Below, one piece after another: positions 8,534 through 43,126 of a stretch of DNA of 44,839 nt. The notes below the pieces were generated by a model. It searched no databases. It was not told where the DNA came from and was given only the letters and a program-made list of their open reading frames with translations. How positions within the stretch are numbered: the stretch's first letter is position 1; every line of letters begins with the position of its first letter. A program made the translations under genes and the position numbers. Source of the stretch: JBMFOH01 sp049969715 [NCBI: bacterium] (lineage in GTDB: Bacteria > DUMJ01); contig JBMFOH010000013.1 in assembly GCA_049969715.1 (NCBI GenBank), positions 1 to 44,839 on the forward strand, in the 5' to 3' direction.

Positions 8534-8560
8534 AATACTCACCTCTCTAACTTAAAACTT

Positions 8561-28141: not shown

Positions 28142-30760
28142 TTAAAGAAGTCCCTCATTTACGCAACAATCACCTTTTATCTCTAGCGTATCCCCTTCTT
28201 CTAATCCTATAGCATCCTCTAGTCTTATAATGCTTTCATCCAAGTTGACATTTAGTAACTGTAGATTTCTCCCTATCAATCTTACAGAGAGTTTTCCTGC
28301 AAATTTCTTCGGTACATCTAGTCTTATGGTTTTTATCTTTACTTTTCCGTAAAAGCTTTCTATAGTAGCTTTGAAAGAACTTTTTGAAATTTCCTGAGCA
28401 AATCTTCCCCAACCACTATCTGTAGAAAAGAAGCATCTAAAGTTGGAAGAAGCTAACTTAGGCTTAAACCTGATAATAAAGTCTCTTCCATCATACTCGT
28501 ACCCAGAAAGTGCTAAAAGTAAAGCCCAACTAGCCATAGCCCTAGCATAGTGATGCCCACACTCAGGTTCATTCCAGGGGTTTCGTTTCAAACCGTCAAA
28601 TCTTTCCCTCAGAGCCTTTACTATTGTAAGTCCTTCCTTTATAAAATCCTCATAAATTAGATGACTTGCTACCTGATACTCAATCCCTGTCCATACCTCA
28701 TCTGAATACGGAAATGGAAATCTTTCTCTATTATCCTTAGGCCAGGTGCATAAAATTAATCCCCTTTCATTATTTAAAGCATAGGTCCTCTGGCAGTTGG
28801 AATGATCCGACAGATCATCCTTCCAATTATATTTAAATATAGACTCTAGAGCCTTTCTCACATATTCTTTAGGGATAAGCTCTCCTAGTCCTATAGTATT
28901 AGCGAGCCATTGTCCTAAAAGTTGATCAGAGAGACAGCCCTCCCCATATTGGTATTTGTAGTTCTTTGTCTTGTCATATTTTTGTATAAAGTATTCGCCA
29001 TTAAATAGTTCTTTAACTAGTAGTTTGCTTCCTCTTTCAAATAGCTCTAAATATTCTCTTGACCTCTCTAATTCCCCTAACCTCTCTCCAATCTCTGAAC
29101 AGGCTTTGAGTGCTCCAAGGTAGAATAAACCAGTCATTGTATTAGGTCCATAGAATTCTATATCATAGGTATTATGCTGTTCCTGTTCCATTACTCCATC
29201 TCTATCTGTATCCCAAGCAGTCCATGCAAATTCTAAAGCTTTTTTAGCATTTTCCCATAATCTCTTTAAGAATTCGTCGTCACCTGAGAATTTCCACTCT
29301 CTATAGAGTTTCATTATAGTGCCCATCTGTCCATCTGCTGCAGGCTTAAAACCCCATCTTCCTGTACCTAAGGGTAACATTGTCCTAAAGGACATCTTAC
29401 CTGTCTCATCTACATTATATAAGAATTCTACCTCACGCATCTTTCTTTCTAACTGTGGGAAGAGGTAAGCCAAGGTCTGTTCATAGTTCCATACATGGGT
29501 ACAGTTCATTGGACAACATCCTTCATTATCACTACATCCTTCAAAGCCAAAGAAATAGCCATCTTCTGTCCTAAAACATGTATTGGTCCTTATAGTAGAG
29601 CTCTGACTTGAGATTGCATCTAATATATAGTTGGGTAGTGTACTTGAAAAGAATAGATTGTGAAACTTTCTTGTTTCTCTTTCAAGTCTCTCTACGTTTT
29701 CAACCATATATCTTGCTACATCCCAGGAATCATCGAATTTAGTAGAATAATAGGTCTTTAATCGAATCTCATCTTTTAGGGGCTCTATCCTAAAGTATTT
29801 TGTAATCTCTTCTGGAAGGTATGGGAAATACCAGGCAAGAAAAATAGGTAACCTCACCTCTTCACCTGGTAGAAGATCAAAATTCAATCCTAATGTAGCT
29901 ACGTCTGTCTGTCCTTCTGGGCTAGGATCACTTGAGTTTTCTTCTTTTAATTTTTCTTGAGTTCTAAACTGATCCCAAAAATCCTGTAGATCATCAAACC
30001 AGCTACTCCTCAGCCATCTCAAGGTGTAAGTAATATCTTTCCATGTAGTTACTATTGCAACACTGCCATATAAAAAATCTTCCTTCTTGAATTTTAAACT
30101 ACTCATCCTTATACCTTTTATTAGACCCTCATTCAAAAACTCATTAAGATTAGAGCCAAAACAAGGAGCGTATCTATTATTTACGCCATAGACATTTCTC
30201 AAAGAAACCTTTCCATCATATCCAACCGGATTAAGCATACTAAAAGCTAGAGTTCCTTCAATAGATGTATAACCTATATTTTTTAGAGTAAAATAGAATA
30301 TAGCTATCGGTAAACCTGAATCAAGGTCATTTAGGGGGATTAGAGGATTAAATGCCTCTAGATTTATTTCCAGCGGTAAATCTCTATCTAAAAATTCTAT
30401 GTAGGCAAAAGGATACTCTCCTTTAAATCTAGCTGAATCTAGTCTTGGAAGTCCTGAGACTCTACTATTTGGAAGCCCATGACTAGCAGTATATGGAGGG
30501 AGTATTTTAGACTCCAATACCTTAGCCTTATACCCTTCTCTATCTTTTATTCTTATAGCAAAGAATGTAAACGGTAAATTTAACCCTTTAGCCGGTCTAT
30601 TAAAGATCTCCCAATCCTGTAAGTTTCCTCTTCCTCCCAGAGATACCGTCCCTGTACCAATTCCTCCCAAGGGGAAAGCTATCTGAGAGAGAGCTTCCCC
30701 CTGGAAAGTTCTTTGAGGCCCAAAATCAAACAGTTCACTATTAGAATAAGGGATCTCCAT
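28142..30760 (-). CDS. GH116 family glycosidase
   Basis: The protein has 872 aa and no signal peptide. The N-terminal domain carries IAFPLGGIGTGTVSLGGRGNL, the hallmark of the GBA2/GH116 family. The (alpha/alpha)6 barrel holds CTHVWNYEQTLA, with the likely nucleophile Glu, then KPAADGQMGTIMKLYREWK and the HNTYDIEFYGPNT region with the likely acid/base Asp. A late DEVWTGIEYQVASHL completes the pattern. Known members cleave beta-glucosides, beta-xylosides or glucosylceramide. It is the last gene of the glycan operon, 4 nt after the FGGY kinase gene, so an intracellular oligosaccharide substrate is likely. Confidence 0.9.
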   Translation of the reverse strand: MEIPYSNSELFDFGPQRTFQGEALSQIAFPLGGIGTGTVSLGGRGNLQDWEIFNRPAKGLNLPFTFFAIRIKDREGYKAKVLESKILPPYTASHGLPNSRVSGLPRLDSARFKGEYPFAYIEFLDRDLPLEINLEAFNPLIPLNDLDSGLPIAIFYFTLKNIGYTSIEGTLAFSMLNPVGYDGKVSLRNVYGVNNRYAPCFGSNLNEFLNEGLIKGIRMSSLKFKKEDFLYGSVAIVTTWKDITYTLRWLRSSWFDDLQDFWDQFRTQEKLKEENSSDPSPEGQTDVATLGLNFDLLPGEEVRLPIFLAWYFPYLPEEITKYFRIEPLKDEIRLKTYYSTKFDDSWDVARYMVENVERLERETRKFHNLFFSSTLPNYILDAISSQSSTIRTNTCFRTEDGYFFGFEGCSDNEGCCPMNCTHVWNYEQTLAYLFPQLERKMREVEFLYNVDETGKMSFRTMLPLGTGRWGFKPAADGQMGTIMKLYREWKFSGDDEFLKRLWENAKKALEFAWTAWDTDRDGVMEQEQHNTYDIEFYGPNTMTGLFYLGALKACSEIGERLGELERSREYLELFERGSKLLVKELFNGEYFIQKYDKTKNYKYQYGEGCLSDQLLGQWLANTIGLGELIPKEYVRKALESIFKYNWKDDLSDHSNCQRTYALNNERGLILCTWPKDNRERFPFPYSDEVWTGIEYQVASHLIYEDFIKEGLTIVKALRERFDGLKRNPWNEPECGHHYARAMASWALLLALSGYEYDGRDFIIRFKPKLASSNFRCFFSTDSGWGRFAQEISKSSFKATIESFYGKVKIKTIRLDVPKKFAGKLSVRLIGRNLQLLNVNLDESIIRLEDAIGLEEGDTLEIKGDCCVNEGLL

Positions 30761-30764
30761 CTAT

Positions 30765-32291
30765 TTATCCTCCCAATTTCTCAAATATTGGTATTAATCT
30801 TTCATAGGCATCGATAAAAACAGGAAATATTCTCCTGTATACAGTCGTCTTGGATTCTTCAGGTATAATTCTTTCTCTTATCCTCACGATCTCTTTTGCT
30901 ACCTTTAAACTCTGGAATATCCCTACCCCCACACCGCCTGCTATAGCCGAACCTAGAGATGTAGCTTCTTCTAAGATCTCCATCCTAAGGATATCTCTCT
31001 CAAATATATTCGCCAGTATATTTGCCCAAAGTTTGCTCTTTCCTCCACCACCAATTAATCTTATCTCTTTTATATCTACCCCCTGCATCAAGAATGCGTC
31101 TAGTATTATCCCGAGATTAAACCCTACCCCTTCTAAGACTGCCCTTATAAGATGAGTCCTTGTGTGTCTTGGTGTAAGACCTATAAACACCCCTCTAGCA
31201 TTAGGGTTCCAATGGGGACTTCTCTCACCCAAAAGATAAGGAAGGAATATAAGATTCTCACAGCCAGGAGGAATCTTTTCTGCTTCTAAATCCATTATCT
31301 CGTAAGGACTTAGACTAAAACTAGAGGCAATCTCTTTTTCTCTAATAGCCAGATTATCCCTTGCCCACTGATAAGAAAGACCTGCCGACTGCATAGTTCC
31401 TGTAGGCATAAATAATCCTGGAGCAAGATGATGAAAGGTGAAGGTCCTAAGTCTAGAATCATATATAGGTCTCTTAGATGCTATGGCAATCCAAGATGAG
31501 GCTCCTAGATAATTATAAGCATCTCCCTCTTCTACAACACCAGCTCCACAGGCAGCACAAGCTCCATCACCTCCACCTATAACTATAGGGATTCCTGAGG
31601 GCAAATCTAATTCACTAGATGCCTCCTGGGCTAGTTCTCCTACGACTTCTAGTGATGAATGAACCTCTGGTAATTTATCTATAGGAATTTCTAAAGCCTC
31701 TATGATCTCTTCTGACCATTTTTCTTGCTGCAGGTCAAAGAGATTAGTTCCTGATGCATCAGAGAAATCTGTTACCCATTTGCCGGTAAGCTTATAGATA
31801 ATAAAATCTTTGGCTAATAAAAACTTATAAGTCTTAGAAAAAACGTCTGGTTCATTCTTCTTTATCCAGAGAATCTTGGCTGCTGAGTAAGTAGGGCTTA
31901 TTCTGTGACCTGTAATCTTATATACTTTTTCTTCTCCAAGCCTTTCCCTTATTAATTCTGCCTCCTTTACACCTCTTTGATCCGCCCAGATGATTATATT
32001 CCTTAGAGGATTTCCATCCCTATCTACTGGGAGACATCCCATCATCTGTCCACTAAAACTTATAACAGCAATCTCTTTACCATTGATTTTACTCTTAGAG
32101 AGTAACTCTTGAGTAGAAATCTTAACTGCCTTCCAATATTCAGAAGGGTCCTGCTCTACCCAGTTAGGATGAGGATAATAAGTGGAATAAGAGTAAAAAG
32201 AAGATGCAACAAGATTTCCTTCTCTATCGTATAGAGTCGCCTTATTACCTGTAGTACCTAGGTCATGGGAGAGGATATAGTTCTTGCCCAT
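30765..32291 (-). CDS. FGGY-family sugar kinase (xylulokinase type)
   Basis: The protein has 508 aa. The N-terminal phosphate block is LSHDLGTTGNKATLYD. NWVEQDPSEYWKAV, SFSGQMMGCLPVD and WADQRG follow, and the C-terminal ATP site is IRLIGGGGKSKLWANI. The overall pattern is that of the xylulokinase branch, which phosphorylates pentuloses at C5. The exact sugar is unknown. Its start lies 34 nt inside the upstream aldolase gene, so the two are translationally coupled. A second, different FGGY kinase is divergent at 41630. Confidence 0.88.
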   Translation of the reverse strand: MGKNYILSHDLGTTGNKATLYDREGNLVASSFYSYSTYYPHPNWVEQDPSEYWKAVKISTQELLSKSKINGKEIAVISFSGQMMGCLPVDRDGNPLRNIIIWADQRGVKEAELIRERLGEEKVYKITGHRISPTYSAAKILWIKKNEPDVFSKTYKFLLAKDFIIYKLTGKWVTDFSDASGTNLFDLQQEKWSEEIIEALEIPIDKLPEVHSSLEVVGELAQEASSELDLPSGIPIVIGGGDGACAACGAGVVEEGDAYNYLGASSWIAIASKRPIYDSRLRTFTFHHLAPGLFMPTGTMQSAGLSYQWARDNLAIREKEIASSFSLSPYEIMDLEAEKIPPGCENLIFLPYLLGERSPHWNPNARGVFIGLTPRHTRTHLIRAVLEGVGFNLGIILDAFLMQGVDIKEIRLIGGGGKSKLWANILANIFERDILRMEILEEATSLGSAIAGGVGVGIFQSLKVAKEIVRIRERIIPEESKTTVYRRIFPVFIDAYERLIPIFEKLGG

Positions 32292-33157
32292 TCTACTATC
32301 TTTTCCACCCTTTCTTCCCTTATTATAGTAGTAAAAGCCTCTCTACAGATGCCATTTCCAATACCTCGTAGTTTAAGTGCATACTTAATTAAAGGGATAT
32401 TCCCATATCTTAGGACACTCACTATCTTTGCTATATCTAACTGAGTATTCCTTGCATCCTCTAATCTATTCTCTCTAAATTCTTTCCACAATTTAACAAA
32501 TAGTTCTGGGAAGACATTGGCATTTCCACTTATACTTCCCTTACATCCTACAGATAATCCCCCTAAAATTTGCTCATCTGCCCCTTCAATAATCATTACC
32601 TTTTTATCTTTAGAGGCAAGCAAATACTCTATAACAGTGGTAAAACTTCCACTACTATCCTTTATACCAACAATATTGGGACAACTCTCTATAAGTCTAG
32701 AAAATAGAGAAGGGTCAATCCGATTTCCAGTACGTTGAGGGATATTATAAAGGTATACAGGAAAATCTTCTGGGACAGAATGAGCTATCTTATAGAAGTA
32801 CTGAAAAAGCTCATCCTCTGAGTAAGAGTAATAATAGGGTGATAAGGCCCCTATTCCATTAGCTCCATAAGCATAGGCATGTTTAGCAAGATCAGCAGCC
32901 TCCTCTGTTCTAATACCACCAATATGAATATAAACTGTAATCCTACCATTTACATAACTTATAACTGTTTCAGCTATCTTTTTCCTTTCCTCTACTGTCA
33001 AAAAGGGAAACTCTCCTGTGGTTCCACAGACATATACACCATTTACCTTAGCATCTATTAGAAAGTCTAATAGGGCTTTCATCGCCTCATAATCAACAGA
33101 ATAGTCCTCATTAAATAAAGTAAGGATAGCAGGGTTAATACCCTCTAGATATTTCAT
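32258..33157 (-). CDS. DapA/NanA-family aldolase
   Basis: The protein has 299 aa with a TIM barrel. The GTTGEFPFLTVEER block and the catalytic Tyr in VYLYNIPQRTG and Lys in IVGIKDSSG are all present. The family covers dihydrodipicolinate synthase, N-acetylneuraminate lyase and 2-keto-3-deoxy-sugar-acid aldolases or dehydratases. The glycan operon context favours a catabolic member acting on a 2-keto-3-deoxy acid or sialic acid. A sequence reading cannot choose between them. Confidence 0.87.
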   Translation of the reverse strand: MKYLEGINPAILTLFNEDYSVDYEAMKALLDFLIDAKVNGVYVCGTTGEFPFLTVEERKKIAETVISYVNGRITVYIHIGGIRTEEAADLAKHAYAYGANGIGALSPYYYSYSEDELFQYFYKIAHSVPEDFPVYLYNIPQRTGNRIDPSLFSRLIESCPNIVGIKDSSGSFTTVIEYLLASKDKKVMIIEGADEQILGGLSVGCKGSISGNANVFPELFVKLWKEFRENRLEDARNTQLDIAKIVSVLRYGNIPLIKYALKLRGIGNGICREAFTTIIREERVEKIVEWARTISSPMT

Positions 33158-33174
33158 CGTTATCTCCTCACTTT

Positions 33175-34182
33175 CTAACTAATCTCTATAACCATATACT
33201 TTATAGTCTCTCTTCTATAAGTATATACCAAATGGATTAAATTATCTCTAGATTGTATTATGCTAGGATAAGAATATTCCCCTTCTTCTGTCTCTAAATC
33301 CCAAATATTCCAATTTTTTCCATCATCTTCAGAGATACCAATATTTAGAGGGGTTCTTTTATCAAAACTATCATTAAAAACAACAACTAATCTTCCATCT
33401 ACAAGTTTTATAAGGTCTATCCCACTATTAGGATTCTTTAAAGTGGTAGGGTTAGACTCATTCCATGTCATACCATAGTCATAAGATTCCGTTTTATATA
33501 TAAAACCATCTCTCGTTCTTAAGAAACATAATAAATGTCCCTTTTCTAATTCTACCACAGCAGGCTGAATACATCCTTTAGGAGTTGTAATCCATCCAGT
33601 AAAAGTCCAATCTTTTAAGTCTCTTGATAACCCAAATATAGCCTTCCAGTTTACCTCATCATACATTGGAAATAGTATCTCTCCATTAGAAAGTCTCAGA
33701 AGTTTATTCCTTATCATCCATCCCCATTCTTTGCGAAGTATTTTCTCTTCTCCAAAGTTTTCCCCAAAATCATTAGATGTTTTATACTTTATTGGACAGG
33801 TATCCCATCCACCTCTTATAAGATTAGCCTTAATAGCTTCAGGATAATTCTTTCCAATGTCTTCTGGCAAACCTCTACCTTCTATGGTCACATAGAATAG
33901 ATAGACCTTACCATCATCTTCAAACAAAACAGGATTACCATCCGCCCTTCCAAGCGTATCTATAATAACCATTGGTTCTTCCCAATTTTTAGAGTTCTTT
34001 TTAAGTCTAGACATTAATATAACTTCATCTGGAGAGGTTTCATAAGCCCCCGCATACCATACTACAACGATATCTCCATTAGAAAGCTCTATTATATTTG
34101 CTGCATGCGACATCGACCTTTTCTCCAACTTATCAAAAACAAAGTCTTTAGATAAAATCCTTAATGATCTATTTAATTGCAT
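33175..34182 (-). CDS. Sialidase-fold (BNR repeat) protein
   Basis: The protein has about 335 aa and a six-bladed sialidase-like propeller. Asp-box-like turns include SNDFGENFGEE, SYDYGMTWNES and SEDDGKNWNIW. A late SYPSIIQSRDNLIHLVYTYRRETIKY is typical of the broad family of intracellular sialidase-like proteins. The early Arg-containing motif of true sialidases (RIP/YRIP) is not evident. Hydrolysis of sialic acid is therefore unproved, and another glycoside may be the target. I prefer ATG 34182, with GGAGA in front. An upstream ATG at 34239 would add 19 residues and has a poor site. Confidence 0.75.
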   Translation of the reverse strand: MQLNRSLRILSKDFVFDKLEKRSMSHAANIIELSNGDIVVVWYAGAYETSPDEVILMSRLKKNSKNWEEPMVIIDTLGRADGNPVLFEDDGKVYLFYVTIEGRGLPEDIGKNYPEAIKANLIRGGWDTCPIKYKTSNDFGENFGEEKILRKEWGWMIRNKLLRLSNGEILFPMYDEVNWKAIFGLSRDLKDWTFTGWITTPKGCIQPAVVELEKGHLLCFLRTRDGFIYKTESYDYGMTWNESNPTTLKNPNSGIDLIKLVDGRLVVVFNDSFDKRTPLNIGISEDDGKNWNIWDLETEEGEYSYPSIIQSRDNLIHLVYTYRRETIKYMVIEIS

Positions 34183-34296
34183 ATTTCTCCAAAAATCAAA
34201 AGATAATCTAGCCTCAGCCAGTCTATAATAAGCTCTCATAACTGGCTAAGGCTAGAACTTAACATTTATAAAGGACCTAGCACCATAACCTAAACA

Positions 34297-35385
34297 TTAG
34301 ATTACCTCGAGCCAGTCTCTATCTGGCATAGGTGGATGTGGCATATGCGGTTCAGTCTGGTACCAAAAGGCTACAGAGGCAATATCATCTTGAAGCGGTA
34401 AATATCTATGTCCAGAACGCCAACCTAAAGCCTGAATAGTTACTCTTATATCTTCTTCAAAACGGATTGGGTCCATAATATGCCACCGGTACATGCCAAA
34501 CCTTTGTTGACTTTGATAAAGACCATCAGGTTTAATTACTTGTGGTAGACCAAGGAAAGGTGTAGAAAAGATACCATATTCACCTTTTGGATCTTCAAAA
34601 TCCCAAGCACCACCAAAGTAGTCTTCAGTTCCTGTTCCACAAATGGTAGGAAAATCTTTATCTCCATCAAGATAAAACTTAACCTCTCCTTCGCCCCACC
34701 AGCCATTGTTATGAACACCCCAGGCGATATATGTCCCTACATAGTGACCTTGTCCCTTAACCCCATCTAAGATGGTATGGACTTCTTTGTACTTCAAAGG
34801 ATTATCCCGGCGCCACTCTGCATGGAAATAAGCAACATCTTCAGGTACATTGGTCAAACTGTAGTCGATTTGATAGTAAAAAATAACAGGGACATCTCCT
34901 AAGTTCTCAATAGTTATCTTTGCAGTATTCCGAAAAGGCATCACCCAATAGGAATTCATACCGCCTGCAGGATTAACTGCTATTGGCAATGAATTAACCT
35001 TACAACGTTGGCACCAACCATTACAAAAAAAGTCACCATATGGGACTTCAATTGAGGGATTTTCTTCCCCATCCCAATAAAACCTTAGAACAAGACTACG
35101 CCAAAAATCTGGAAAACAAGTCATCCATATATGTTGAATAATACCTGGACCATTGATATCTGCTAAAGTTATAATACTGTGAGGGGGAATATTAATCGAA
35201 GGAGAAATCTTCCATCCTTGGCCTAAGTCTCGGGCACATTCAGCACCTGTACCTTCAATTGCCATTCCTCCTTTACCTTTTTCCCCTGTAAAGTTTTCGG
35301 CACTAATAGAACGTGACTTCGCTCGAGATAATTTTGGTAAACTACCAAGCCCTAAGTTTAAACCACTGAAATTATCCATAAACAT
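34297..35385 (-). CDS. DUF2961 / GH172 family glycosidase
   Basis: The protein has 362 aa and no signal peptide. The early SRAKSRSISAENFTGEKGKG block, the DINGPGIIQHIWMT block and the later GTGTEDYFGGAWDFE block are hallmarks of DUF2961. This family is now classed as GH172, with members shown to act on alpha-D-arabinofuranosides and on fructose dianhydrides or inulobiose. The protein lies 12 nt after the DUF4185 gene. A cytoplasmic exo-enzyme acting on imported fragments is likely. The catalytic acids cannot be assigned with certainty by eye. Confidence 0.88.
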   Translation of the reverse strand: MFMDNFSGLNLGLGSLPKLSRAKSRSISAENFTGEKGKGGMAIEGTGAECARDLGQGWKISPSINIPPHSIITLADINGPGIIQHIWMTCFPDFWRSLVLRFYWDGEENPSIEVPYGDFFCNGWCQRCKVNSLPIAVNPAGGMNSYWVMPFRNTAKITIENLGDVPVIFYYQIDYSLTNVPEDVAYFHAEWRRDNPLKYKEVHTILDGVKGQGHYVGTYIAWGVHNNGWWGEGEVKFYLDGDKDFPTICGTGTEDYFGGAWDFEDPKGEYGIFSTPFLGLPQVIKPDGLYQSQQRFGMYRWHIMDPIRFEEDIRVTIQALGWRSGHRYLPLQDDIASVAFWYQTEPHMPHPPMPDRDWLEVI

Positions 35386-35397
35386 TACGCCTCCGTA

Positions 35398-37056
35398 TTA
35401 TTTTATCAATTTCATCTTCATCCAGTAAACATTATATGGCATCCATAGTGACATAGTAAAATATACTGTTTCACCTTGATTTTCTACGTATAAAGGATGC
35501 ATAAAAGCCCCATAAAGTCCAGGATAATCTCTTGCATATACAAGCGTCAACGGGGCACTCCAAGGTCCCCATGGATAAAGAGCTTCTCTTATCTCTATAT
35601 TATGGCTCTTTTCATTAAGATAGGTAATAATCCATCTTTTAAGGAATTGATTATAAATTACAGAACATTCTCCAACTGGAGGGTTGATAATTAGTAGAGC
35701 TTTCTCTTCATCTTTAGACCATTCAGGATTACCCTCCTTGTCAATTCCTGTAAAGTATAAATAGGCAGAAGGATTCTCTAAATTTCCAGAATTTACTTTC
35801 ATTAACTTCACTCCTCCAAAACGTCCTGCAGGAATACCCCATATTAAAATGTCATCCTCATCTATTTCAAAATTAGGATTAACTACAGGGGTCCCTTTTA
35901 CCTTATAAATTGCTACTTGAGCAAAGTTACTATCACCTTCCCACATTGGTCTTTCTAGTTTCTTCCATGTCCATCCTTCGTCTTCTGAAACAGCTATTCC
36001 AGAATAATTTGTCTCCCAATATCCCGGCTCTCCCCATTTTTTAACCGCCATAAAAAAGAGATACATCTTATTTCCAATTGCAACGCCATTTGTAGGAATA
36101 ACTGTAGCATCTTGAGGGTTCCTATGGATTAATTCCTTTGCATATCTGTAATAATTAAAGTTAATAGGAGTAAAAGCTCTAAGGAGTTTGTCTAACCCTT
36201 CATTATTCTGAAAATAATAAAAATTATTATCTTCAGAAAAATACTCTATAAAGACATTATAATCATTTTGTCCCCACTCCTTTCCTCCAAATCCATATTT
36301 TGCACTTTGGAGAGAATTAAAATAATCTAGGTACTCTCCTGCAATAACCCAGTTATTACCGTCTTTACTATAGTAAAACAGGTATTTGTTGTTTTGTTTA
36401 GAGATACGTAAAAATGGTTCAGAAAAATCAAGAGAGATTATCTTTCTAAAGGTTCCATTGAAAATACCACTTGCTTCCATCAAATTATTCCCTAAAGGTC
36501 CCCACAAAAGCCAATTATTTTCATCTTTAAAAACAATTAAACCAAAGAAGTTAGTGCCATACGGTATTGCTTCGTTTTTAGAAATTTTCATATCAATTGA
36601 CCAATTATTATTTGATGGAATTTTAAGGAATTTAGGAGCCATATCTGTCCCTATCCATAAATCGCTTCTCTTCATAATATGCATTTTTAAGTTATTATCT
36701 TCCACCTCATAGTATGATCCCTCCCTTGTCCAGATGAAGTCGTCAAAAGTTATCCCATCTGAAGGCTTTGTATCTGAAGTAAAAGCCATTACATTACTTC
36801 GCCATAGGGTTTTGTTTTTACCAAAAGTATCGCCAAAAACAAAATATATCCGATTCCCCATTTCAAACATATGACCTAGATCACATCCATAGACAGCACG
36901 CTCTTCACACAAAGGGCCATTTATACTATCAATACCTGTTAATTTAGCAACCATATCTACCTTTACATCTCTTAAAATCTTTTCACTTCCCAAAGCAATC
37001 TTATCTACTAATGAAAAGATTAATATTAAAGAGAGTAATAAAACAACATACTTCAT
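35398..37056 (-). CDS. Exported DUF4185 (GH183-type) protein with an inserted lectin-like domain
   Basis: The protein has 552 aa. A signal peptide (about 1-24) is followed by a beta-propeller with the DUF4185 marks: YGCDLGHMFEMGNRIYFVFGDTFG, WRSNVMAF, VIPTNGVAIGNKMYLFFMAV, GIPAGRFGGVKLM, ECSVIYNQFLKRWIITYLN and a C-terminal YGAFMHPLYV. Residues about 115-270 look like a separate beta-sandwich (DUF1349 or LamG-like) inserted between blades, perhaps for glycan binding. DUF4185 members include the GH183 endo-D-arabinofuranases. Its export fits the first cleavage of a polymer outside the cell. The ATG has an AGGAGG site. The 181-nt gap upstream (37057-37237) shows no further gene. Confidence 0.8.
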   Translation of the reverse strand: MKYVVLLLSLILIFSLVDKIALGSEKILRDVKVDMVAKLTGIDSINGPLCEERAVYGCDLGHMFEMGNRIYFVFGDTFGKNKTLWRSNVMAFTSDTKPSDGITFDDFIWTREGSYYEVEDNNLKMHIMKRSDLWIGTDMAPKFLKIPSNNNWSIDMKISKNEAIPYGTNFFGLIVFKDENNWLLWGPLGNNLMEASGIFNGTFRKIISLDFSEPFLRISKQNNKYLFYYSKDGNNWVIAGEYLDYFNSLQSAKYGFGGKEWGQNDYNVFIEYFSEDNNFYYFQNNEGLDKLLRAFTPINFNYYRYAKELIHRNPQDATVIPTNGVAIGNKMYLFFMAVKKWGEPGYWETNYSGIAVSEDEGWTWKKLERPMWEGDSNFAQVAIYKVKGTPVVNPNFEIDEDDILIWGIPAGRFGGVKLMKVNSGNLENPSAYLYFTGIDKEGNPEWSKDEEKALLIINPPVGECSVIYNQFLKRWIITYLNEKSHNIEIREALYPWGPWSAPLTLVYARDYPGLYGAFMHPLYVENQGETVYFTMSLWMPYNVYWMKMKLIK

Positions 37057-37237
37057 AAATCAATCCTCCTGGTATATACTTTATCTAGATAAAACATTAA
37101 TCAGATTTCAAGCCTTTCAAAATCTCTAATTCTTTAGTTAATATTACTCTTTCCAAGAATTTCAATATAACCAAATGCATCTACTCTTTGCTATTTTCAA
37201 TATTAGTTCCTACCTCATTCCTCCCACTCTTTCCTCC

Positions 37238-38059
37238 TCAGAATTTCATTCCTGTAATTGTAATACTTTGCATTAATTGTTTCTGCAAAATCACAAAGAT
37301 TATAACAGAGGGAATAATAGCAACTGTACATGCAGCTAGTTGTATTGCCCAGGGATTATTGAATTCTCCACCATACTGAGCTATACCAAGTTGAACAGTT
37401 CTCATAGAGGGACTATTAATAACTACAAGAGGCCACATAAAAGAATTCCAATTAGCAAGAAAGAAAAATACGGCTAATGCTGAAAGGATAGGCCTAGATA
37501 TGGGGATTATTATCCTAAAGAATATATTAGGTATATTACAACCATCAAGAGTTGCTGCCTCTTCTAATTCACGAGGAAAATTTAAATAAAACTGTCTAAG
37601 TAGAAAAATACCAAAAGCATGGGGAATAGCAGGTATTATTAGTCCTGAATATGTATTAATCCAACCAAAAAATTTCACTACAAAGAAAAGAGGGATCAGT
37701 ATGGCGGAAGAAGGTATCATTAATGTACTGATTACTAAAAAAAATAAAAATTCTCTGCCAGGATATTTTAGTCTGGCCAAAGAATAGGCAGCCATTGAGT
37801 GCAAAAATAAGGCAACAATTGTAACAACAGTGGATACATAAAAACTATTAAGCATATATCTTAAAAATGGAACCTGTTGAAAAACTTTCAGATAATTTCC
37901 CCATACAAATTCTTTTGGAAACAAGACTGGTGGGAACTTAAAAATCTCCCTCGGGGATTTTATAGAACTTATAAACATCCAATACTGGGGGAATATAAAA
38001 ACAATTGCTAATAATGTAAGAATAAAATATTTAAGAATGAGCATAAATTTTTTCTTCAT
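37238..38059 (-). CDS. Sugar ABC transporter permease (MalG type)
   Basis: The protein has 273 aa and six membrane segments. The conserved coupling loop reads ELEEAATLDGCNIPNIFFRIIIPISRP, the EAA motif that meets the ATPase. The N-terminal FPQYWMFISSIKSPREIF is typical of the MalG/carbohydrate-uptake-1 branch. It lies 15 nt after the other permease gene. No ATPase is encoded in the operon, so a shared one must power it. Confidence 0.93.
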   Translation of the reverse strand: MKKKFMLILKYFILTLLAIVFIFPQYWMFISSIKSPREIFKFPPVLFPKEFVWGNYLKVFQQVPFLRYMLNSFYVSTVVTIVALFLHSMAAYSLARLKYPGREFLFFLVISTLMIPSSAILIPLFFVVKFFGWINTYSGLIIPAIPHAFGIFLLRQFYLNFPRELEEAATLDGCNIPNIFFRIIIPISRPILSALAVFFFLANWNSFMWPLVVINSPSMRTVQLGIAQYGGEFNNPWAIQLAACTVAIIPSVIIFVILQKQLMQSITITGMKF

Positions 38060-38074
38060 AATTTTATTACCTCC

Positions 38075-38947
38075 TCACATTGCAATTTTTCCGCTTCTTA
38101 AAACTTTAAGCATAAAGAAAGAGAGAGTAGCTAATATTAAAAAAAGGAGAAAGGCCTGAGCTGAACCATAACCAAAATGATACATTTGAAAAGCAGTATA
38201 ATACATATAATAAACTGATGTTGAAGTGCTATAGTATGGTCCTCCCCCTGTCAAAATATAGATATAGTCAAATACTTGAAATCCTTGAAGAAAAGTCATA
38301 ATTAACACAAAAGTAGATGTTGGTTTAAGAAGGGGAAAAGTGATAAACCAAAATCTCTGAATAGCATTTGCTCCATCCATTTTTGAAGCCTCATAATATT
38401 CTAATGGGATATCATTTAGACCCGCGAGAAAAATCACCATATAATATCCTACGCTCATATATAAATGTACTACTAAGATACAGAATAAAGCTTGTTGAGT
38501 TGAGCCTAAAAATGGCTGGTGAGATACTCCAAAAAATGAAATAATATAATTAATAAACCCGTAAGGTTGAAACATATATTTCCATATAAATGAAATAGCC
38601 ACAGAAGACATAGCTGTTGAAGCAAAAAAAATCGCTTTATATATCCCTATTCCTTTTATTTCTTCTTTAACCAAGAGAGCCAGTAATAACGAAATAATAA
38701 AATTTAAGGGAACAAAGATCAAAGAATATTTTACCGTATTCGAAAGACTCTTTATCCAATACGGATCTGACCATATATTTCGATAGTTTGAGAAACCAGA
38801 AAAAATAGGTTGGCCGATTGCATCCCAATTATATAGGCTTATAATAAAGGCTATTATCGCAGGAACAGCCCAAAAAATCATCAATCCAATTAAATCAGGA
38901 ATCAAAAATAAATATCCAAAGAACAATTCTTGTATATTCTTCTTCAC
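38075..38947 (-). CDS. Sugar ABC transporter permease (MalF/UgpA type)
   Basis: The protein has 290 aa and six membrane segments. The EAA coupling loop reads IPLEYYEASKMDGANAIQRF. FSGFSNYRNIWSDPYW in the first periplasmic loop is typical of this branch. It forms the heterodimeric channel with the MalG-type permease. It follows the binding-protein gene after a stem-loop at 38999-39034. Confidence 0.93.
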   Translation of the reverse strand: MKKNIQELFFGYLFLIPDLIGLMIFWAVPAIIAFIISLYNWDAIGQPIFSGFSNYRNIWSDPYWIKSLSNTVKYSLIFVPLNFIISLLLALLVKEEIKGIGIYKAIFFASTAMSSVAISFIWKYMFQPYGFINYIISFFGVSHQPFLGSTQQALFCILVVHLYMSVGYYMVIFLAGLNDIPLEYYEASKMDGANAIQRFWFITFPLLKPTSTFVLIMTFLQGFQVFDYIYILTGGGPYYSTSTSVYYMYYTAFQMYHFGYGSAQAFLLFLILATLSFFMLKVLRSGKIAM

Positions 38948-38998
38948 TAACTAGAATCCTCCTTTTTGGGATATTAAAAAATTAATAATCTTAGAATA

Positions 38999-39034
38999 AA
39001 GGGTCACTAAGAAGAACTTCCCCTAGTGACCCTT
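38999..39034 (-). terminator. Intercistronic stem-loop after the binding-protein gene
   Basis: On the minus strand AAGGGTCACTA and TAGTGACCCTT form an 11-bp stem with a 14-base loop, about 10 nt after the stop codon. No long T-run follows. Such hairpins are common between binding protein and permease genes, where they stabilise the upstream message or cause partial termination. Confidence 0.65.
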
Positions 39035-39044
39035 AAAGTTACTA

Positions 39045-40316
39045 TCACATACCTGGAATACCGCCTTTATAATTCTTCAAAAAATCAGTGATGGAGGCTT
39101 CAGCGTTTTTAGCAGCTACCTTAGCATCAATCCCTCCAAACATTACTCCTTGTATTGCATCGGAAACTGCCTTTACTATCTCTGGTGGAAAGGCTGGCTC
39201 TGATTTTGCCGTTTGAATAATCTTTGAGAAAATATCATTAGGAGGAGTAGAATAATACTTCTCTCCGGCTTTTAGGACAGATTTCCTGGGAGAGAACTTT
39301 GAGTTTGCAACTGTACACCATTCGAGGGGAAAATCTATCTGTTCTACTCCCATCCACTTAGCAAATTTAATAGCTTCTTCCACATTCTTACTTTTAGCAT
39401 TAACCATAAGCCTCCATCCACCGTATACACTTATACTCTTATGTTTGTCATCAATAGGAGGAATCGGAAAAACACCAAATTCATATTTAGGGAAATCAGC
39501 CTGAAGTGGTTTAACTCCCCAAAAACCACATACCATCATATCTGCTATTCCATTACCGAGCATAGTAATATCCGGACCTGAACCTGGTAAGGTTTTTGGA
39601 GCTACATCTTCTTTTATAAAATCTCCCCATAATTTTAGTGCAGCTATTCCAGCCTGGCTTGTCATCAATGCTCTTTTCCAATCCTTAGAAATTACATCGC
39701 CTCCTGCAGACCAAAGAAAAGGATACCAGGTGAAATTCTGATAATAACCCGGAGCAACTTCTACGATTATTCCGTATTTCTCACCCTTTCTCAATTTATG
39801 GGCAGTATCTAAAAGCTCATTCCATGTTTTTGGTTCTTGTAAACCAAGATTCTTAAAGGACTTTTTGTTATAAAAGATAGCAACTGGCTCCATTTCAAGT
39901 GGAATAGCGAATATATGGCCACTAACTTTAACAGATTGTATCGTTGCTGGTAAGAAATCCTTTATTTCTTCTGTTGATAAATATTTCTCAAGTGGCTGAG
40001 CTAATCCTGCATTTACATATCTAAGAAAATCCCCAGGGCTTATAAAGAAGACATCTGGCCCTTGTCCTGTAGCAAAAGCACTAGATAACTTAGTACCAGT
40101 GTAATCTCCCCATGGGAAAGTCTCAAAGATTACCTCAATATCAGGGTGCGACTGATTCCATAATTTTATGTATTTTTCTATTGTGGCATCAGCAAAGGTA
40201 TCAGTAAATTTCCAGAATCTTACCTGGACCTTGTCTTTGGTAAATCCAGCAGAAACAAAAAGTACTGATATCATTAGAGTTGATACTAGGAGTATAACTA
40301 CTCCTTTTTTTATCAT
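39045..40316 (-). CDS. Sugar ABC transporter solute-binding protein (family 1)
   Basis: The protein has 423 aa. The signal peptide ends near VSAG and has no lipobox Cys, so the protein should be free in a periplasm. The mature part begins VQVRFWKFTDTFADATIEKY and shows the family-1 pattern, with IEVIFETFPWGDY and GQGPDVFFISPGDF. Residues KTWNELLDTA and PLEMEPVAIFYNKK follow. The ATG at 40316 has GGAGGTGA at ideal spacing, better than the ATG five codons upstream. The ligand is not readable; the operon suggests an oligosaccharide. Confidence 0.93.
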   Translation of the reverse strand: MIKKGVVILLVSTLMISVLFVSAGFTKDKVQVRFWKFTDTFADATIEKYIKLWNQSHPDIEVIFETFPWGDYTGTKLSSAFATGQGPDVFFISPGDFLRYVNAGLAQPLEKYLSTEEIKDFLPATIQSVKVSGHIFAIPLEMEPVAIFYNKKSFKNLGLQEPKTWNELLDTAHKLRKGEKYGIIVEVAPGYYQNFTWYPFLWSAGGDVISKDWKRALMTSQAGIAALKLWGDFIKEDVAPKTLPGSGPDITMLGNGIADMMVCGFWGVKPLQADFPKYEFGVFPIPPIDDKHKSISVYGGWRLMVNAKSKNVEEAIKFAKWMGVEQIDFPLEWCTVANSKFSPRKSVLKAGEKYYSTPPNDIFSKIIQTAKSEPAFPPEIVKAVSDAIQGVMFGGIDAKVAAKNAEASITDFLKNYKGGIPGM

Positions 40317-40478
40317 AAAAATCACCTCCATAAAGAATTCTCAAAATTTTCAGAGACTCTAAAATCTCCTCTAATCTAAATTCTCTAGATATTAATCTTT
40401 CAAAGTACATCTACCTACAGAAGAACGAAACTCTCATCATTTATCATCAAATTTACTGCAAAGTCTCTAACATTACTC

Positions 40479-41486
40479 TTATCTCTTCCCCCTTCTACTT
40501 GATTCTCTTATAATAAGCTTTGGCTTTAGTACCACCACCTCCTTTCTAAGCTTTGCAGTCCTTCCTAATTTCCTTAGAAGTAACTGAGCTGAGGTAGAAC
40601 CAATTGTATAGATTGGCTGAGAGATAGTAGTTAATGGAGGGTCTATAAGTGGAGCCCATTCTAAATCATCAAATCCAACAATCCCTATTTCTTCTGGAAT
40701 CTTGATGTTCATCTCTTTAAGTGCCAATAAAACTCCCGTAGTCATTACATTGTTTGTTATAAAAAAAGCATCAGGCTTTGCTCTTTCAATAAGCCTTTTA
40801 ACCGCTCTGTATCCACCCTCTTGCGTATATCCTCCATTTTCTACTAGGTTCTCATCGAAATCTATCCTTGCCTCTGTAAGGGCTTTTTTGTACCCCTCAA
40901 GCCTTTCTCTTGCTGTCATTACTTCTAACGGCCCGGTAATTATACCTATCCTCGTATAGCCCTCATAGATAAGATGCAATACCCCTTCATATGCTCCACT
41001 TATATTATCAATTATCACTCCATCTGCTTCTAATCCATCTATAAGTCTGTCTATCAGTATTAAAGGGATACCTCTATCTATTATTCCTCTAATAATCTTG
41101 TGATCTCCTCCAGTAGGAGCGAGGATTATTCCATCTACTTTCTTATTCTGGAGAACTCTAAGATAATTCGCCTCTTTTTCTATGTTCTCGTCTGCATTGC
41201 AAAGGAGCAGACTGTATCCAACTACACTTAAGACATCCTCTATTCCTCTAACTACTTGTGTAAAGAATGGATTTGTTATATCAGAGACTATTACACCTGC
41301 TAGATTCGTTCTTTCTTTTGATGCTTTCACCTCTTTATATCTCTCATATCCAAGCTCTTCCGCCACCTGAATTATCTTTTTCCGAGTCTCTGGATTTACA
41401 TATCCAGTATTATAAAGGGCTCTAGATACTGTGGCTGTAGAAACCCCTGTTCTTTCAGCTATATCTTTTATAGTAGTCGTCTTTAC
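40479..41486 (-). CDS. LacI-family transcriptional regulator with anomalous start
   Basis: The ligand-binding domain has the standard LacI/RbsB pattern (LAGVIVSDITNPFFTQVVRGIE, GIVGFDDLEWAPLIDPPLTTI). A full helix-turn-helix is encoded upstream: TIKDIAERTGVSTATVSRAL, then YNTGYVNPETRKK. In that frame no ATG, GTG or TTG lies between the helix-turn-helix and an in-frame TGA at 41489-41487. A GTG at 41490 would fit if one base of AAA (41482-41484) were absent, giving MSKTTTIKDIA. The other in-frame start, GTG 41366, would remove the DNA-binding domain. The gene may use a rare start codon, carry a sequence error, or be inactivated. It likely controls the glycan operon. Confidence 0.8.
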   Translation of the reverse strand, partial: VKTTTIKDIAERTGVSTATVSRALYNTGYVNPETRKKIIQVAEELGYERYKEVKASKERTNLAGVIVSDITNPFFTQVVRGIEDVLSVVGYSLLLCNADENIEKEANYLRVLQNKKVDGIILAPTGGDHKIIRGIIDRGIPLILIDRLIDGLEADGVIIDNISGAYEGVLHLIYEGYTRIGIITGPLEVMTARERLEGYKKALTEARIDFDENLVENGGYTQEGGYRAVKRLIERAKPDAFFITNNVMTTGVLLALKEMNIKIPEEIGIVGFDDLEWAPLIDPPLTTISQPIYTIGSTSAQLLLRKLGRTAKLRKEVVVLKPKLIIRESSRRGKR

Positions 41487-41516
41487 TCACTCCATTCTTT
41501 AATATCATATCATTCT

Positions 41517-41558
41517 ATGTAACGATAAGATTATACATTGAAAAATTTCTTATGTCAA
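41517..41558 (-). promoter_or_regulatory. Perfect-consensus promoter and candidate operator of the LacI-type gene
   Basis: On the minus strand TTGACA (41558-41553) and TATAAT (41535-41530) are 17 nt apart, a full consensus match. The -35 is preceded by CTA. An imperfect inverted repeat ATGTA...TACAT (41517-41538) overlaps the -10 and start point, so self-repression by the LacI-type protein is plausible. Confidence 0.7.
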
Positions 41559-41580
41559 TAGTCTATGAAATGAGAATAAT

Positions 41581-41592
41581 TTATGCTATAAT
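41581..41592 (+). promoter_or_regulatory. Extended -10 promoter of the second FGGY kinase
   Basis: TTATGCTATAAT is identical over 12 bases to the rtcB promoter element. No good -35 is seen 17 nt upstream. It predicts a start near 41599, with an AAGGAGG ribosome binding site before the ATG at 41630. Confidence 0.6.
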
Positions 41593-41629
41593 TCATAACA
41601 AAATAAAGTTCTTCGAGAAGGAGGTCTTT

Positions 41630-43126
41630 ATGTATTTTATAGGTATCGACTGTGGAACTCAAAGCTTAAGAACTGGTGTGTTTGATAAAAGGGGAACACC
41701 ACTAGCATTTGCCGTTAAAGATTATCCTGTTCATTATCCCTACTCTGGTTGGGCAGAACAAGATGCAAGAGATTGGTGGTCTGCCCTGAAATTTACAGTG
41801 AAAAAAGTCATAAAAGATTCAGGGATAGATCCAAAAGCAGTTGGAGGTATAAGTCTAGATGCTATGGCCTGTACTGTAGTGGCTTTAGATGAAAATGGCG
41901 ATCCATTGAGAAATGCCTTATTATGGATGGATGTGAGGGCTTTTAAAGAAGCACAAGAAGTAACTGCCACAAAAGAAGATATATTAAGGTTTGCTGGAGG
42001 AGATGAGTCCCCAGAGTGGATGATCCCTAAAGCTATGTGGCTAAAGAAGAACGAACCAGATGTTTATAATAGAGCCAGATATATTGTAGAAGCTACCGAT
42101 TATCTTATGTATAAGCTTACAGGAAGATGGACTGCTTCTATATGTAATGCTACTTGTAAGTGGAACTATGCCTCAGTTCTAGGTGGATTTCCTATAAATC
42201 TCTTGAAGAAACTAGATATGGAGGACCTCTTAGAAAAGTGGCCTAAGGATGTATTAAGTATAGGGGAAATTTCTAGTGGACTTTCGAAGACAGCTAGTGA
42301 AGAACTAGGTCTACCTCCTGGAATCCCTGTAGCTGAAGGAGGAATAGATGCCTATTTGGCAATGGTAGGTTTAAATATCACCTCTCCAGGTAAGATGGGT
42401 ATAATAATGGGATCTTCCAATTGTCATATGGCTATTACTGATGAGGCTGTCTTTGGGACAGGTGTCTGGGGACCTTATCCAGATGCTCTTATAAAAGGAA
42501 AGTGGGTATTAGAAGGAGGACAAACATCTACAGGCTCTGTAGTAAAATGGTTTACCGACCAGTTTACTAATCTCTCTTATGAAGAATTAGATAACGAGGC
42601 TAGCAAGATCCCCCCAGGGTCTGAAGGCCTTATAGTCTTAGAATACTGGCAAGGTTATAGATCTCCAATAAGAGACCCTCTTGCAAGAGGAACCATCTGG
42701 GGGCTAAGCTTAAAGCATACTCCTTATCATATCTTTAGAGCCATCTACGAAGGTACTGCCTATGGCACAAGGAATATAATTGAAGCCATAGCTTCAAAGG
42801 GAGTAGATTTGAATGAGATATATGCCTGTGGTGGGGGCACAAGAAGTAGATTGTGGCTTCAGATAAATGCCGATGTATGTGGAGTTCCAATCTACATACC
42901 TGAGGTAGAAGAGGCTGGATGTCTAGGTTCTGCCATAGCAGGAGCAGTTGGTGCTGGCTTCTTCAAAGACCTACAAGAAGGGGCAAGCCAAATGGTAAAG
43001 ATAAAGAGTACAATAGAACCAAATCTCCAAAACAAAAATATTTATGATTTCTATTTTGATAAGTATAAGAAGACCTACTTTCAGTTAAAAGACCTTATGC
43101 ATGATATGATAAGATTCACTCTTTAG
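41630..43126 (+). CDS. FGGY-family pentulose kinase (ribulokinase-like)
   Basis: The protein has 498 aa. It starts MYFIGIDCGTQSLRTGVFD at ATG 41630 with AAGGAGG in front. HYPYSGWAEQDARDWWSAL, LLWMDVRAF, the sugar-site EGGIDAYLAMV and the ATP-site CGGGTRSRLWLQINADV follow. The GIDxGTxSxR start and the HYPxxGWAEQD block point to the ribulokinase or related pentulose branch rather than glycerol kinase. It is divergent from the LacI-type gene, so it may belong to the same regulon as the glycan operon. It differs clearly from the kinase at 30765. Confidence 0.88.
   Translation: MYFIGIDCGTQSLRTGVFDKRGTPLAFAVKDYPVHYPYSGWAEQDARDWWSALKFTVKKVIKDSGIDPKAVGGISLDAMACTVVALDENGDPLRNALLWMDVRAFKEAQEVTATKEDILRFAGGDESPEWMIPKAMWLKKNEPDVYNRARYIVEATDYLMYKLTGRWTASICNATCKWNYASVLGGFPINLLKKLDMEDLLEKWPKDVLSIGEISSGLSKTASEELGLPPGIPVAEGGIDAYLAMVGLNITSPGKMGIIMGSSNCHMAITDEAVFGTGVWGPYPDALIKGKWVLEGGQTSTGSVVKWFTDQFTNLSYEELDNEASKIPPGSEGLIVLEYWQGYRSPIRDPLARGTIWGLSLKHTPYHIFRAIYEGTAYGTRNIIEAIASKGVDLNEIYACGGGTRSRLWLQINADVCGVPIYIPEVEEAGCLGSAIAGAVGAGFFKDLQEGASQMVKIKSTIEPNLQNKNIYDFYFDKYKKTYFQLKDLMHDMIRFTL

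What the first reader, a model, noticed from the sequence alone, without database searches (positions are those of the whole stretch)
28142..43126. Glycan operon joining DUF4185 (GH183-type) and DUF2961 (GH172): candidate D-arabinofuranan use system
One minus-strand operon holds an exported DUF4185 protein, a cytoplasmic DUF2961/GH172 protein, a sialidase-fold protein, GH116, a DapA-type aldolase, an FGGY kinase and a family-1 sugar importer, with a second FGGY kinase divergent. DUF4185 and DUF2961 families include the endo- and exo-D-arabinofuranosidases (GH183, GH172). Together with pentulose-type kinases, this suggests breakdown of a D-arabinofuranose-bearing polymer outside, import, trimming inside and entry through D-ribulose. 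I infer the substrate. The neighbouring families are read from sequence.
Basis: partly seen in the sequence, partly recalled or inferred. Interest (0 to 1): 0.68.

Follow-up and report, generated by a model that had tools for sequence, protein, structure and literature searches.

The report
Bacterial operon for eating D-arabinan
A bacterium, probably a deep relative of the Bacillota, carries one operon with the three enzyme types known to take apart D-arabinan, the unusual sugar polymer of mycobacterial cell walls, plus an importer, sugar kinases and a sialidase-like/aldolase gene pair of unknown purpose.

Summary
An apparent minus-strand operon, 41486 to 28142, reads LacI regulator, sugar-binding protein, two permeases, DUF4185 (hydrophobic N-terminus), DUF2961, BNR_2 sialidase-fold protein, DapA-type aldolase, FGGY kinase and GH116; a second FGGY kinase is divergent. 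The D-arabinan reading is strengthened. The best solved-structure matches of three proteins are the D-arabinan enzymes EndoMA1 (GH183), ExoMA1 (GH172) and ExoMA2 (GH116, exo-beta-D-arabinofuranosidase). The eight EndoMA1 residues checked, both GH172 catalytic glutamates and the four ExoMA2 residues checked are kept, including the two that set ExoMA2 apart from a beta-glucosidase.

Two things differ. The endo-enzyme carries a DUF1349-like domain inserted in its DUF4185 domain. The BNR_2/aldolase pair recurs elsewhere without the D-arabinan genes and is not explained by D-arabinan cleavage; the BNR_2 protein lacks two sialidase catalytic residues. No FucI-, AraA- or XylA-type isomerase was found in the window; 4 of 9 GH183 genomes searched have a FucI-like gene of unproven specificity. 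Activity is untested. Verdict: a new member of a known kind (D-arabinan utilisation loci described in 2023), in a probable Bacillota lineage, with one unexplained module.

The parts
28142..30760 (-). GH116, predicted intracellular exo-beta-D-arabinofuranosidase (872 aa)
   Evidence: Pfam PF12215/PF04685; best solved match 8ic6, exo-beta-D-arabinofuranosidase, E=1.4e-166, 559 bits, against 133 bits for the next; E407, H422, R459, D533 = ExoMA2 E431, H446, R483, D557; no N-terminal hydrophobic stretch by eye
30765..32291 (-). FGGY kinase, xylulokinase type (508 aa)
   Evidence: TIGR01312 425.8 bits, cut-off 380.25; best solved match 2itm xylulose kinase
32258..33157 (-). DHDPS/NAL-superfamily aldolase (299 aa), exact reaction unknown
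   Evidence: PF00701; below the DapA (178.2 of 206.15) and NanA cut-offs; PDB best 2yxg and YagE; lysine K166 and a GTTGE motif present (their roles recalled)
33175..34239 (-). BNR_2 sialidase-fold protein (354 aa), no signal peptide seen by eye
   Evidence: PF13088; model pLDDT 84.2, Foldseek best 5hx0 of unknown function, then mostly sialidases; H45 and Q225 at two sialidase catalytic places
34297..35385 (-). DUF2961/GH172, predicted intracellular exo-alpha-D-arabinofuranosidase (362 aa)
   Evidence: Best solved match 8ic8, exo-alpha-D-arabinofuranosidase, E=1.1e-148, 498 bits, against 163 for the fructofuranosidase; W229, E232, E254, D255, W261 kept, D262 at the Araf/Fruf site
35398..37056 (-). 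DUF4185/GH183, predicted exported endo-D-arabinanase (552 aa) with a DUF1349-like domain inserted at about residues 110-300
   Evidence: PF13810, and a PF07081 hit under its cut-off; EndoMA1 8hhv E=1.3e-43; eight of eight EndoMA1 residues checked are kept; insertion aligned; fold hits EndoMA1 and AraH2; hydrophobic N-terminus by eye
37238..38059 (-). sugar ABC importer permease
   Evidence: PF00528
38075..38947 (-). sugar ABC importer permease
   Evidence: PF00528
39045..40331 (-). extracellular sugar-binding protein
   Evidence: PF01547; hydrophobic N-terminus, no lipobox cysteine seen by eye
40479..41486 (-). LacI-family regulator, start corrected to GTG 41486
   Evidence: PF13377; helix-turn-helix upstream of the listed ORF
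41530..41592 (.). divergent promoter region: minus TTGACA-17-TATAAT (41558-41530) and plus 10-of-12 site with TG before the -10 (41565-41592)
   Evidence: controls
41552..43126 (+). FGGY pentulose-type kinase, likely start 41630
   Evidence: PF00370/PF02782; TIGR01315 345.2 of 408.7 bits and ribulokinase NF003154 335.5 of 428, both below cut-off; best solved matches 3gg4/3l0q and ribulokinase 3qdk

Best explanation
The locus is a D-arabinofuranan utilisation operon. An exported GH183 endo-D-arabinanase, with a built-in accessory domain that may hold it on the glycan, cuts alpha-D-arabinofuranan outside the cell. A family-1 ABC importer takes up the oligosaccharides. Inside, GH172 removes alpha-D-Araf and GH116 removes beta-D-Araf ends, giving D-arabinose. 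An isomerase not identified here would make D-ribulose, and one or both FGGY kinases would phosphorylate the pentulose into the pentose phosphate pathway. The LacI protein represses the divergent promoters until an arabinan-derived sugar binds. Shown here by sequence: families, conserved active sites, gene layout. Inferred: activity, cell location, substrate source, isomerase, co-transcription, regulation. The BNR_2/aldolase pair is an added module, unassigned.
For: [quoted passage not shown] Residues checked and kept: 8 of 8 in GH183, 5 of 5 in GH172 plus a non-Gly residue at the Araf/Fruf site, 4 of 4 in GH116. The layout (endo-enzyme with signal, ABC importer, exo-enzymes without) matches the Microbacterium scheme. 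GH183, GH172 and GH116 also lie together in Cohnella zeiphila (L026) and in G449 (L093/L132). G319 carries GH183, GH172, LacI, binding protein and both permeases in one run (L127). Isomerase genes with the three L-fucose isomerase Pfam domains lie near GH183 and importer genes in L128 and L131; relatives of the L131 gene occur elsewhere in G319 and G449.
Against: No FucI-, AraA- or XylA-type isomerase among the 42 window ORFs, and no whole genome to search. GH172 of this clade is common without the partners: of 80 loci with 60-81% identity, tblastn at E 1e-8 saw GH183 in 7, GH116 in 5 and both in 1 (some loci are short, so these are lower bounds), so GH172 alone proves little. The isomerases of L131 and L155 score far below the curated L-fucose isomerase cut-offs, and the L155 one slightly higher against a sulfoquinovose isomerase model (also far below cut-off), so their D-arabinose specificity is inference. 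Five of the nine GH183 genomes searched gave only weak or fragmentary isomerase matches. The operon kinase scores as a xylulokinase. The aldolase and BNR_2 protein have no role in this scheme. Nothing was assayed, and the producer of the D-arabinan is unknown.
Confidence: 0.82

Rival explanations
1. The operon degrades a different furanoside or mixed polysaccharide (for example an alpha-fructofuranosyl or L-arabino/galactofuranosyl polymer); GH183, GH172 and GH116 have drifted in specificity.
For: GH172 includes the alpha-fructofuranosidase alphaFFase1 (PMC8605356). Of 80 GH172 loci only 7 showed GH183, so the family may serve other uses. BNR_2 and an aldolase are extra.
Against: Asp262 stands where the fructosidase has Gly; 78 of 84 GH172 rows have Asn or Asp there (two of the 84 rows, L081 and L089, are overlapping pieces of one gene). 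ExoMA2's Araf-specific H and R are present, not the beta-glucosidase D and H. The EndoMA1 subsite residues checked are all kept.
Confidence: 0.12
2. Oxidative D-arabinose route (compatible with D-arabinan as substrate): D-arabinose to D-arabinonate to 2-keto-3-deoxy-D-arabinonate, split by the DapA-type aldolase to pyruvate and glycolaldehyde, so that no isomerase is needed. The pathway itself is recalled.
For: An aldolase with YagE among its closest solved relatives sits in the operon and no FucI/AraA/XylA-type isomerase was found. Zinc dehydrogenases lie at 8561-10611. BNR_2 relatives in two haloarchaeal plasmids lie near enolase-superfamily genes and, in one, a D-xylose dehydrogenase.
Against: No sugar-acid dehydratase was found among the 42 window ORFs. 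Two pentulose-type kinases belong to the locus, which this route does not need. The window dehydrogenases sit about 17.5 kb away in a separate gene run and score below every cut-off listed.
Confidence: 0.1
3. Two functions side by side (compatible with the best explanation): a D-arabinan operon that gained an unrelated BNR_2/aldolase cassette for sugar acids, with no shared substrate.
For: A BNR_2 relative with a DHDPS-family gene within 8 kb, in backgrounds where no D-arabinan gene was seen: 5 of 11 plasmid loci viewed and 5 of 8 genome loci with enough flank, 4 of them adjacent or in one run.
Against: In the window the pair lies between GH172 and the kinase with gaps of 57, 17 and -34 bases, so it is probably transcribed and used with them.
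Confidence: 0.25

Closest known systems
D-arabinan-degrading PUL of Microbacterium arabinogalactanolyticum (PMC10509167; abstract and passages seen)
   Same: GH183 endo, GH172 exo-alpha, GH116 exo-beta, ABC importer; same predicted division between outside and inside; best solved match for all three hydrolases
   Different: There: four DUF4185 genes and a putative isomerase and kinase in the cluster. Here: one GH183 with an inserted DUF1349-like domain, where EndoMA1 has a separate putative CBM domain; no such isomerase found; two FGGY kinases; an added BNR_2/aldolase pair; probable Bacillota host
Dysgonomonas gadei PUL42 (PMC10115798; passages and section 18 seen)
   Same: DUF2961 and DUF4185 enzymes on D-arabinan; conserved catalytic acids
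   Different: [quoted passage not shown] our locus has an ABC importer and no FucI-type gene
alphaFFase1 of Bifidobacterium dentium, GH172 (PMC8605356; passages seen)
   Same: Catalytic Glu270 and Glu291 match E232 and E254
   Different: 163 bits against 498 for ExoMA1; Gly299 replaced by Asp262
GH33 sialidases
   Same: Sialidase fold; two arginines and a tyrosine kept in the BNR_2 protein
   Different: First triad arginine and the glutamate replaced by His45 and Gln225 (which residues are catalytic in sialidases is recalled); no signal peptide seen

Membership tests
GH183 (DUF4185) endo-D-arabinanase | DUF4185 domain above curated cut-off | tested here: met
   254.6 bits, cut-off 39.5
GH183 (DUF4185) endo-D-arabinanase | Two catalytic Asp and the third essential Glu (EndoMA1 D33, D51, E243) with the subsite residues named in the passage | tested here: met
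   D59, D76, E463; W341, P344, R412, L514, Y515
GH183 (DUF4185) endo-D-arabinanase | Endo-activity on D-arabinan | not testable with these tools
   needs an assay
GH172 exo-alpha-D-arabinofuranosidase | DUF2961 with both catalytic Glu | tested here: met
   E232 and E254; Glu at E232 in 84 of 84 rows and at E254 in 83 of 84, one not aligned there
GH172 exo-alpha-D-arabinofuranosidase | Bulky residue (Asn253 in ExoMA1), not Gly, at the Araf/Fruf site | tested here: met
   D262, Asp rather than Asn
GH116 subfamily 4 exo-beta-D-arabinofuranosidase | ExoMA2 nucleophile, acid/base and the Araf-recognising His446 and Arg483 | tested here: met
   E407, D533, H422, R459; also kept in 6 of 6 GH116 genes found in GH172 loci. 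No tree was made
D-arabinan utilisation locus | Isomerase plus kinase for D-arabinose in the cluster | tested here: not met
   kinases present; no FucI-, AraA- or XylA-type gene among 42 window ORFs; genome not held
D-arabinan utilisation locus | Growth on, or induction by, D-arabinan | not testable with these tools
   needs culture
GH33 sialidase (BNR_2 protein) | Arg triad, Glu and Tyr of the active site (recalled) | tested here: not met
   R241, R295 and Y324 align, but Q225 stands at the Glu place and H45 at the Arg-1 place; sequence alignment only, the H45 register by eye
DapA or NanA (aldolase) | Curated equivalog cut-off | tested here: not met
   178.2 of 206.15 (TIGR00674), 181.9 of 281 (NF003164), 143 of 382 (TIGR00683)
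Xylulokinase (operon FGGY) | TIGR01312 cut-off | tested here: met
   425.8 of 380.25; true substrate untested
Pentulose/ribulokinase (divergent FGGY) | TIGR01315 or ribulokinase cut-off | tested here: not met
   345.2 of 408.7; 335.5 of 428

The most novel reading that the evidence does not exclude
The operon feeds D-arabinose from two sources into one pentulose route: D-arabinan (GH183/GH172/GH116) and a 3-deoxy-2-ulosonic acid such as Kdo, released by a new sialidase-fold enzyme clade and split by the aldolase into pyruvate and D-arabinose. NAL-type lyases can join D-arabinose and pyruvate to Kdo, though only at 1-1.5% of their ManNAc rate (PMC4016182, passages); GH33 is listed with a Kdo hydrolase activity (PMC9120202, one passage); and the same pair lies in one gene run with a kdsB gene in L134 and beside a divergent L-fucose isomerase gene in L135 (that such isomerases also take D-arabinose is recalled). 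If so, this BNR_2 clade would be an undescribed sugar-acid enzyme family found in several phyla.
Probability: 0.13. Interest if true: 0.68.

Novelty: new member of a known kind. Interest (0 to 1): 0.46.

Why it matters
It would add a probable Bacillota case to the D-arabinan loci characterised in 2023 in Microbacterium (Actinomycetota) and Dysgonomonas (Bacteroidota), offer a compact enzyme set for trimming arabinogalactan and lipoarabinomannan, and supply a candidate D-arabinan-binding module (the DUF1349-like insert). It also exposes a recurring pair of a BNR_2 protein, annotated as 'exo-alpha-sialidase' on many plasmids, and a DapA-type aldolase, whose substrate is unknown and could be tested with this operon's proteins.

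Tried and rejected
Fructan use: rejected as first choice because of Asp262 and the ExoMA1-side score. Beta-glucosidase reading of GH116: rejected, since the Araf-type H and R are present. Plain sialidase reading of BNR_2: rejected as membership, with two catalytic residues replaced. Genuine DapA (lysine biosynthesis): below cut-off. C4-tetronate pathway for the aldolase product: suggested by Rhizobium and Azospirillum neighbours (C4-acid sugar kinase, PdxA), but no such genes were found in the window. LacI operator: no inverted repeat found in the divergent region at the settings used. The GH183 structure model is weak (pLDDT 67.6), so only its fold ranking is used. Alignments A2 and A4 misplaced the accessory-domain rows and were not used for the model; A3 was. 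A2 is used only to say which GH183 proteins have the insert. Placement of the host: the window ClpC is 61% identical to those of three Bacillota MAGs (L001, L002, L015), 65% over a partial stretch to a fourth (L016), and 64% at best to one genome in the class of G319, so only 'probable Bacillota' is claimed.

Only part of the BNR_2 hits was followed: context was fetched for 4 of 11 genomes and 6 of 29, and 11 of the 306 plasmid records, all 11 from its best 25 rows and picked by genus, not at random. The PLSDB gene table is incomplete and my ORF caller keeps one ORF per stretch, so absences there are soft.


Full report
What is there. The minus-strand run 41486 to 28142 holds, in transcription order, a LacI-type regulator, a family-1 sugar-binding protein, two permeases, DUF4185, DUF2961, BNR_2, DHDPS-type aldolase, FGGY kinase and GH116, with a divergent FGGY kinase. 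Spacing runs from a 34-base overlap to 181 bases. The LacI start was moved to GTG 41486, which restores the helix-turn-helix. An exact sigma-70 consensus precedes it, and a 10-of-12 site precedes the divergent kinase. Promoter-like sites in general are not above chance there (48 against 51.0 in shuffles); exact 12-of-12 sites are rare, with two in the window, the other upstream of two tRNA genes.

The three hydrolases. Against all solved structures, DUF2961 matches the exo-alpha-D-arabinofuranosidase 8ic8 at 498 bits and the fructofuranosidase alphaFFase1 at 163. DUF4185 matches only the endo-D-arabinanase EndoMA1 and its mutant at E up to 1. GH116 matches the exo-beta-D-arabinofuranosidase 8ic6 at 559 bits and GH116 glucosidases at 133 or less. 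That 8ic8 and 8ic6 are ExoMA1 and ExoMA2 is taken from their molecule names and from the residue numbers, which fit. These enzymes come from one locus and together were reported to degrade D-arabinan completely (PMC10509167; abstract and passages).

Residues. Reading the printed alignments against the residue numbers in the papers: EndoMA1 D33, D51, W138, P141, R198, E243, L292, Y293 become D59, D76, W341, P344, R412, E463, L514, Y515; GH172 acid/base E270 and nucleophile E291 of alphaFFase1 become E232 and E254; the Gly299/Asn253 site is D262; ExoMA2 E431, H446, R483, D557 become E407, H422, R459, D533 (positions; the 8ic6 chain runs four residues ahead of the paper's numbers at all four sites). 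In 84 GH172 rows (two of them, L081 and L089, pieces of one gene) the D262 site is N in 55, D in 23, C in 2, G in 2 and unaligned or gapped in 2. Among the GH183 relatives the two catalytic Asp are Asp wherever those columns aligned, while the P344 and L514 places vary.

Architecture of the endo-enzyme. Residues about 110-300 form a DUF1349-like insert between the first and second part of the DUF4185 domain (the DUF1349 hit itself is below its cut-off). Two copies of the same domain (42 and 39% identical) sit in tandem at the N-terminus of the GH183 of G319. Among the 12 GH183 proteins of alignment A2 only the window's has it inside the domain. The model is of modest quality (pLDDT 67.6); its best folds are EndoMA1 and AraH2, with 3o12 and 3mep, two proteins without known function, matched over about 175 columns (that these are DUF1349-type is recalled). 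EndoMA1 itself has a separate putative CBM domain that bound a D-arabino-tetrasaccharide in the crystal, so a binding role for the insert is a reasonable inference.

Relatives. Of 80 GH172 loci from named genomes (60-81% identity), tblastn at E 1e-8 saw GH183 in 7 and GH116 in 5, both in 1, Cohnella zeiphila L026; none showed BNR_2 and one a distant DHDPS (L055, 28%). The GH183 query matched in 5 of 398 genomes of the phylum of G001 and 14 of 400 of the phylum of G010, the genome of an Anaerolineae MAG; 2 of the 5 (G118, G393) and 1 of the 14 (G802) match only in the accessory-domain part. G319 has GH183-GH172-LacI-binding protein-permease-permease (L127); G449 has GH172, GH183, GH116, importer and LacI (L093/L132). 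Isomerases with the three L-fucose isomerase Pfam domains lie near GH183 in L128 and L131. Among 9 GH183 genomes searched, matches below E 1e-130 to the L131 isomerase were found in 4: G445 (the query itself), G305, G449 and G319; the last lies about 20 kb from GH183 and G449's on another contig. The other five (G467, two Paenibacillus, two Cohnella) gave only weak or fragmentary matches. The L131 and L155 isomerases are far below the curated L-fucose isomerase cut-offs (106.5 and 88 of 775 bits), and L155 scores 91.1 of 700 against sulfoquinovose isomerase. Their use of D-arabinose is therefore inferred from context only.

The BNR_2/aldolase pair. The BNR_2 model is good (pLDDT 84.2) with a sialidase fold; the closest solved structure has unknown function. 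Its place in GH33 fails on H45 and Q225. Relatives have a DHDPS-family gene within 8 kb in 5 of 11 plasmid regions viewed: Rhizobium, Klebsiella, Azospirillum, Streptomyces and Martelella yes; Haladaptatus, Paraburkholderia, Monoglobus, Rufibacter, Croceibacterium and Halomontanus no (one search is a DUF4185 region and not counted). Among 8 genome loci with enough flank, L134, L135, L154 and L157 have it adjacent or in one run, L156 about 7 kb off, and L136, L151 and L153 not seen (L137 and L152 are too short; the BNR_2 partner next to the aldolase is only 24% identical in L154 and L157). No GH183, GH172 or GH116 relative was labelled in these eight loci. L134 also holds a kdsB gene above the TIGR00466 cut-off, and L135 an L-fucose isomerase above cut-off. 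So the pair is an independent module, most likely for a 2-keto-3-deoxy or ulosonic sugar acid. Known chemistry (D-arabinose + pyruvate to Kdo by NAL-type lyases, at 1-1.5% of the ManNAc rate; PMC4016182 passages) makes Kdo a tempting but unproven link to D-arabinose.

Literature. Library searches for GH183/DUF4185 and D-arabinan listed three papers in all; a GH172 search listed eight. In the passages I read, characterised enzymes come from Actinomycetota, from Dysgonomonas (Bacteroidota) and from the parasitic bacterium M. amalyticus, and Thermobaculum terrenum is named for a GH116. I saw no Bacillota D-arabinan locus in those passages; most subscription papers and all supplements were out of reach.

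Verdict. The system is a new member of a known kind; the new points are the likely host group, the inserted accessory domain and the BNR_2/aldolase module, which remains unexplained.

Noticed in passing
window 16439-19060: A ClpC-type protein of 873 aa whose first about 42 residues match the N-terminus of separate proteins of about 175-220 aa in other genomes (probably McsA, recalled) while the rest matches ClpC; a second Clp ATPase lies at 13672-16128.
   Followed up: partly
window 4355-12167: A second minus-strand catabolic run: alpha-L-rhamnosidase-type protein, amidohydrolase, two zinc dehydrogenases, ribulose-phosphate 3-epimerase (above cut-off) and a xylose-isomerase-like TIM barrel of unknown specificity, which could bear on the missing isomerase step.
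   Followed up: partly
window 43153-44771: URO-D-family and corrinoid-binding protein genes directly beside the divergent kinase, perhaps the edge of a methyltransfer cluster.
   Followed up: no
L131 10930-13020; L132 3059-5353: A DUF6259 protein of about 700-760 aa lies in both GH183 clusters; ORFs with a similar N-terminus are in L004, L026, L033 and L129 (by eye); possibly another arabinan-linked enzyme that the window lacks.
   Followed up: partly
L161, L162, L165, L166, L171: 'Exo-alpha-sialidase' or 'sialidase family' genes related to this BNR_2 protein on plasmids (306 plasmid records match) lie within 8 kb of a dihydrodipicolinate-synthase-family gene in 5 of 11 regions viewed; the sialidase annotation is doubtful.
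   Followed up: partly
L168 (Tateyamaria plasmid): A DUF4185 gene sits near UbiA-family prenyltransferase, SDR, FAD-oxidoreductase and GtrA genes, a set reminiscent (recalled) of decaprenyl-phosphoryl-D-arabinose synthesis, hinting at D-Araf glycans outside Mycobacteriales.
   Followed up: no
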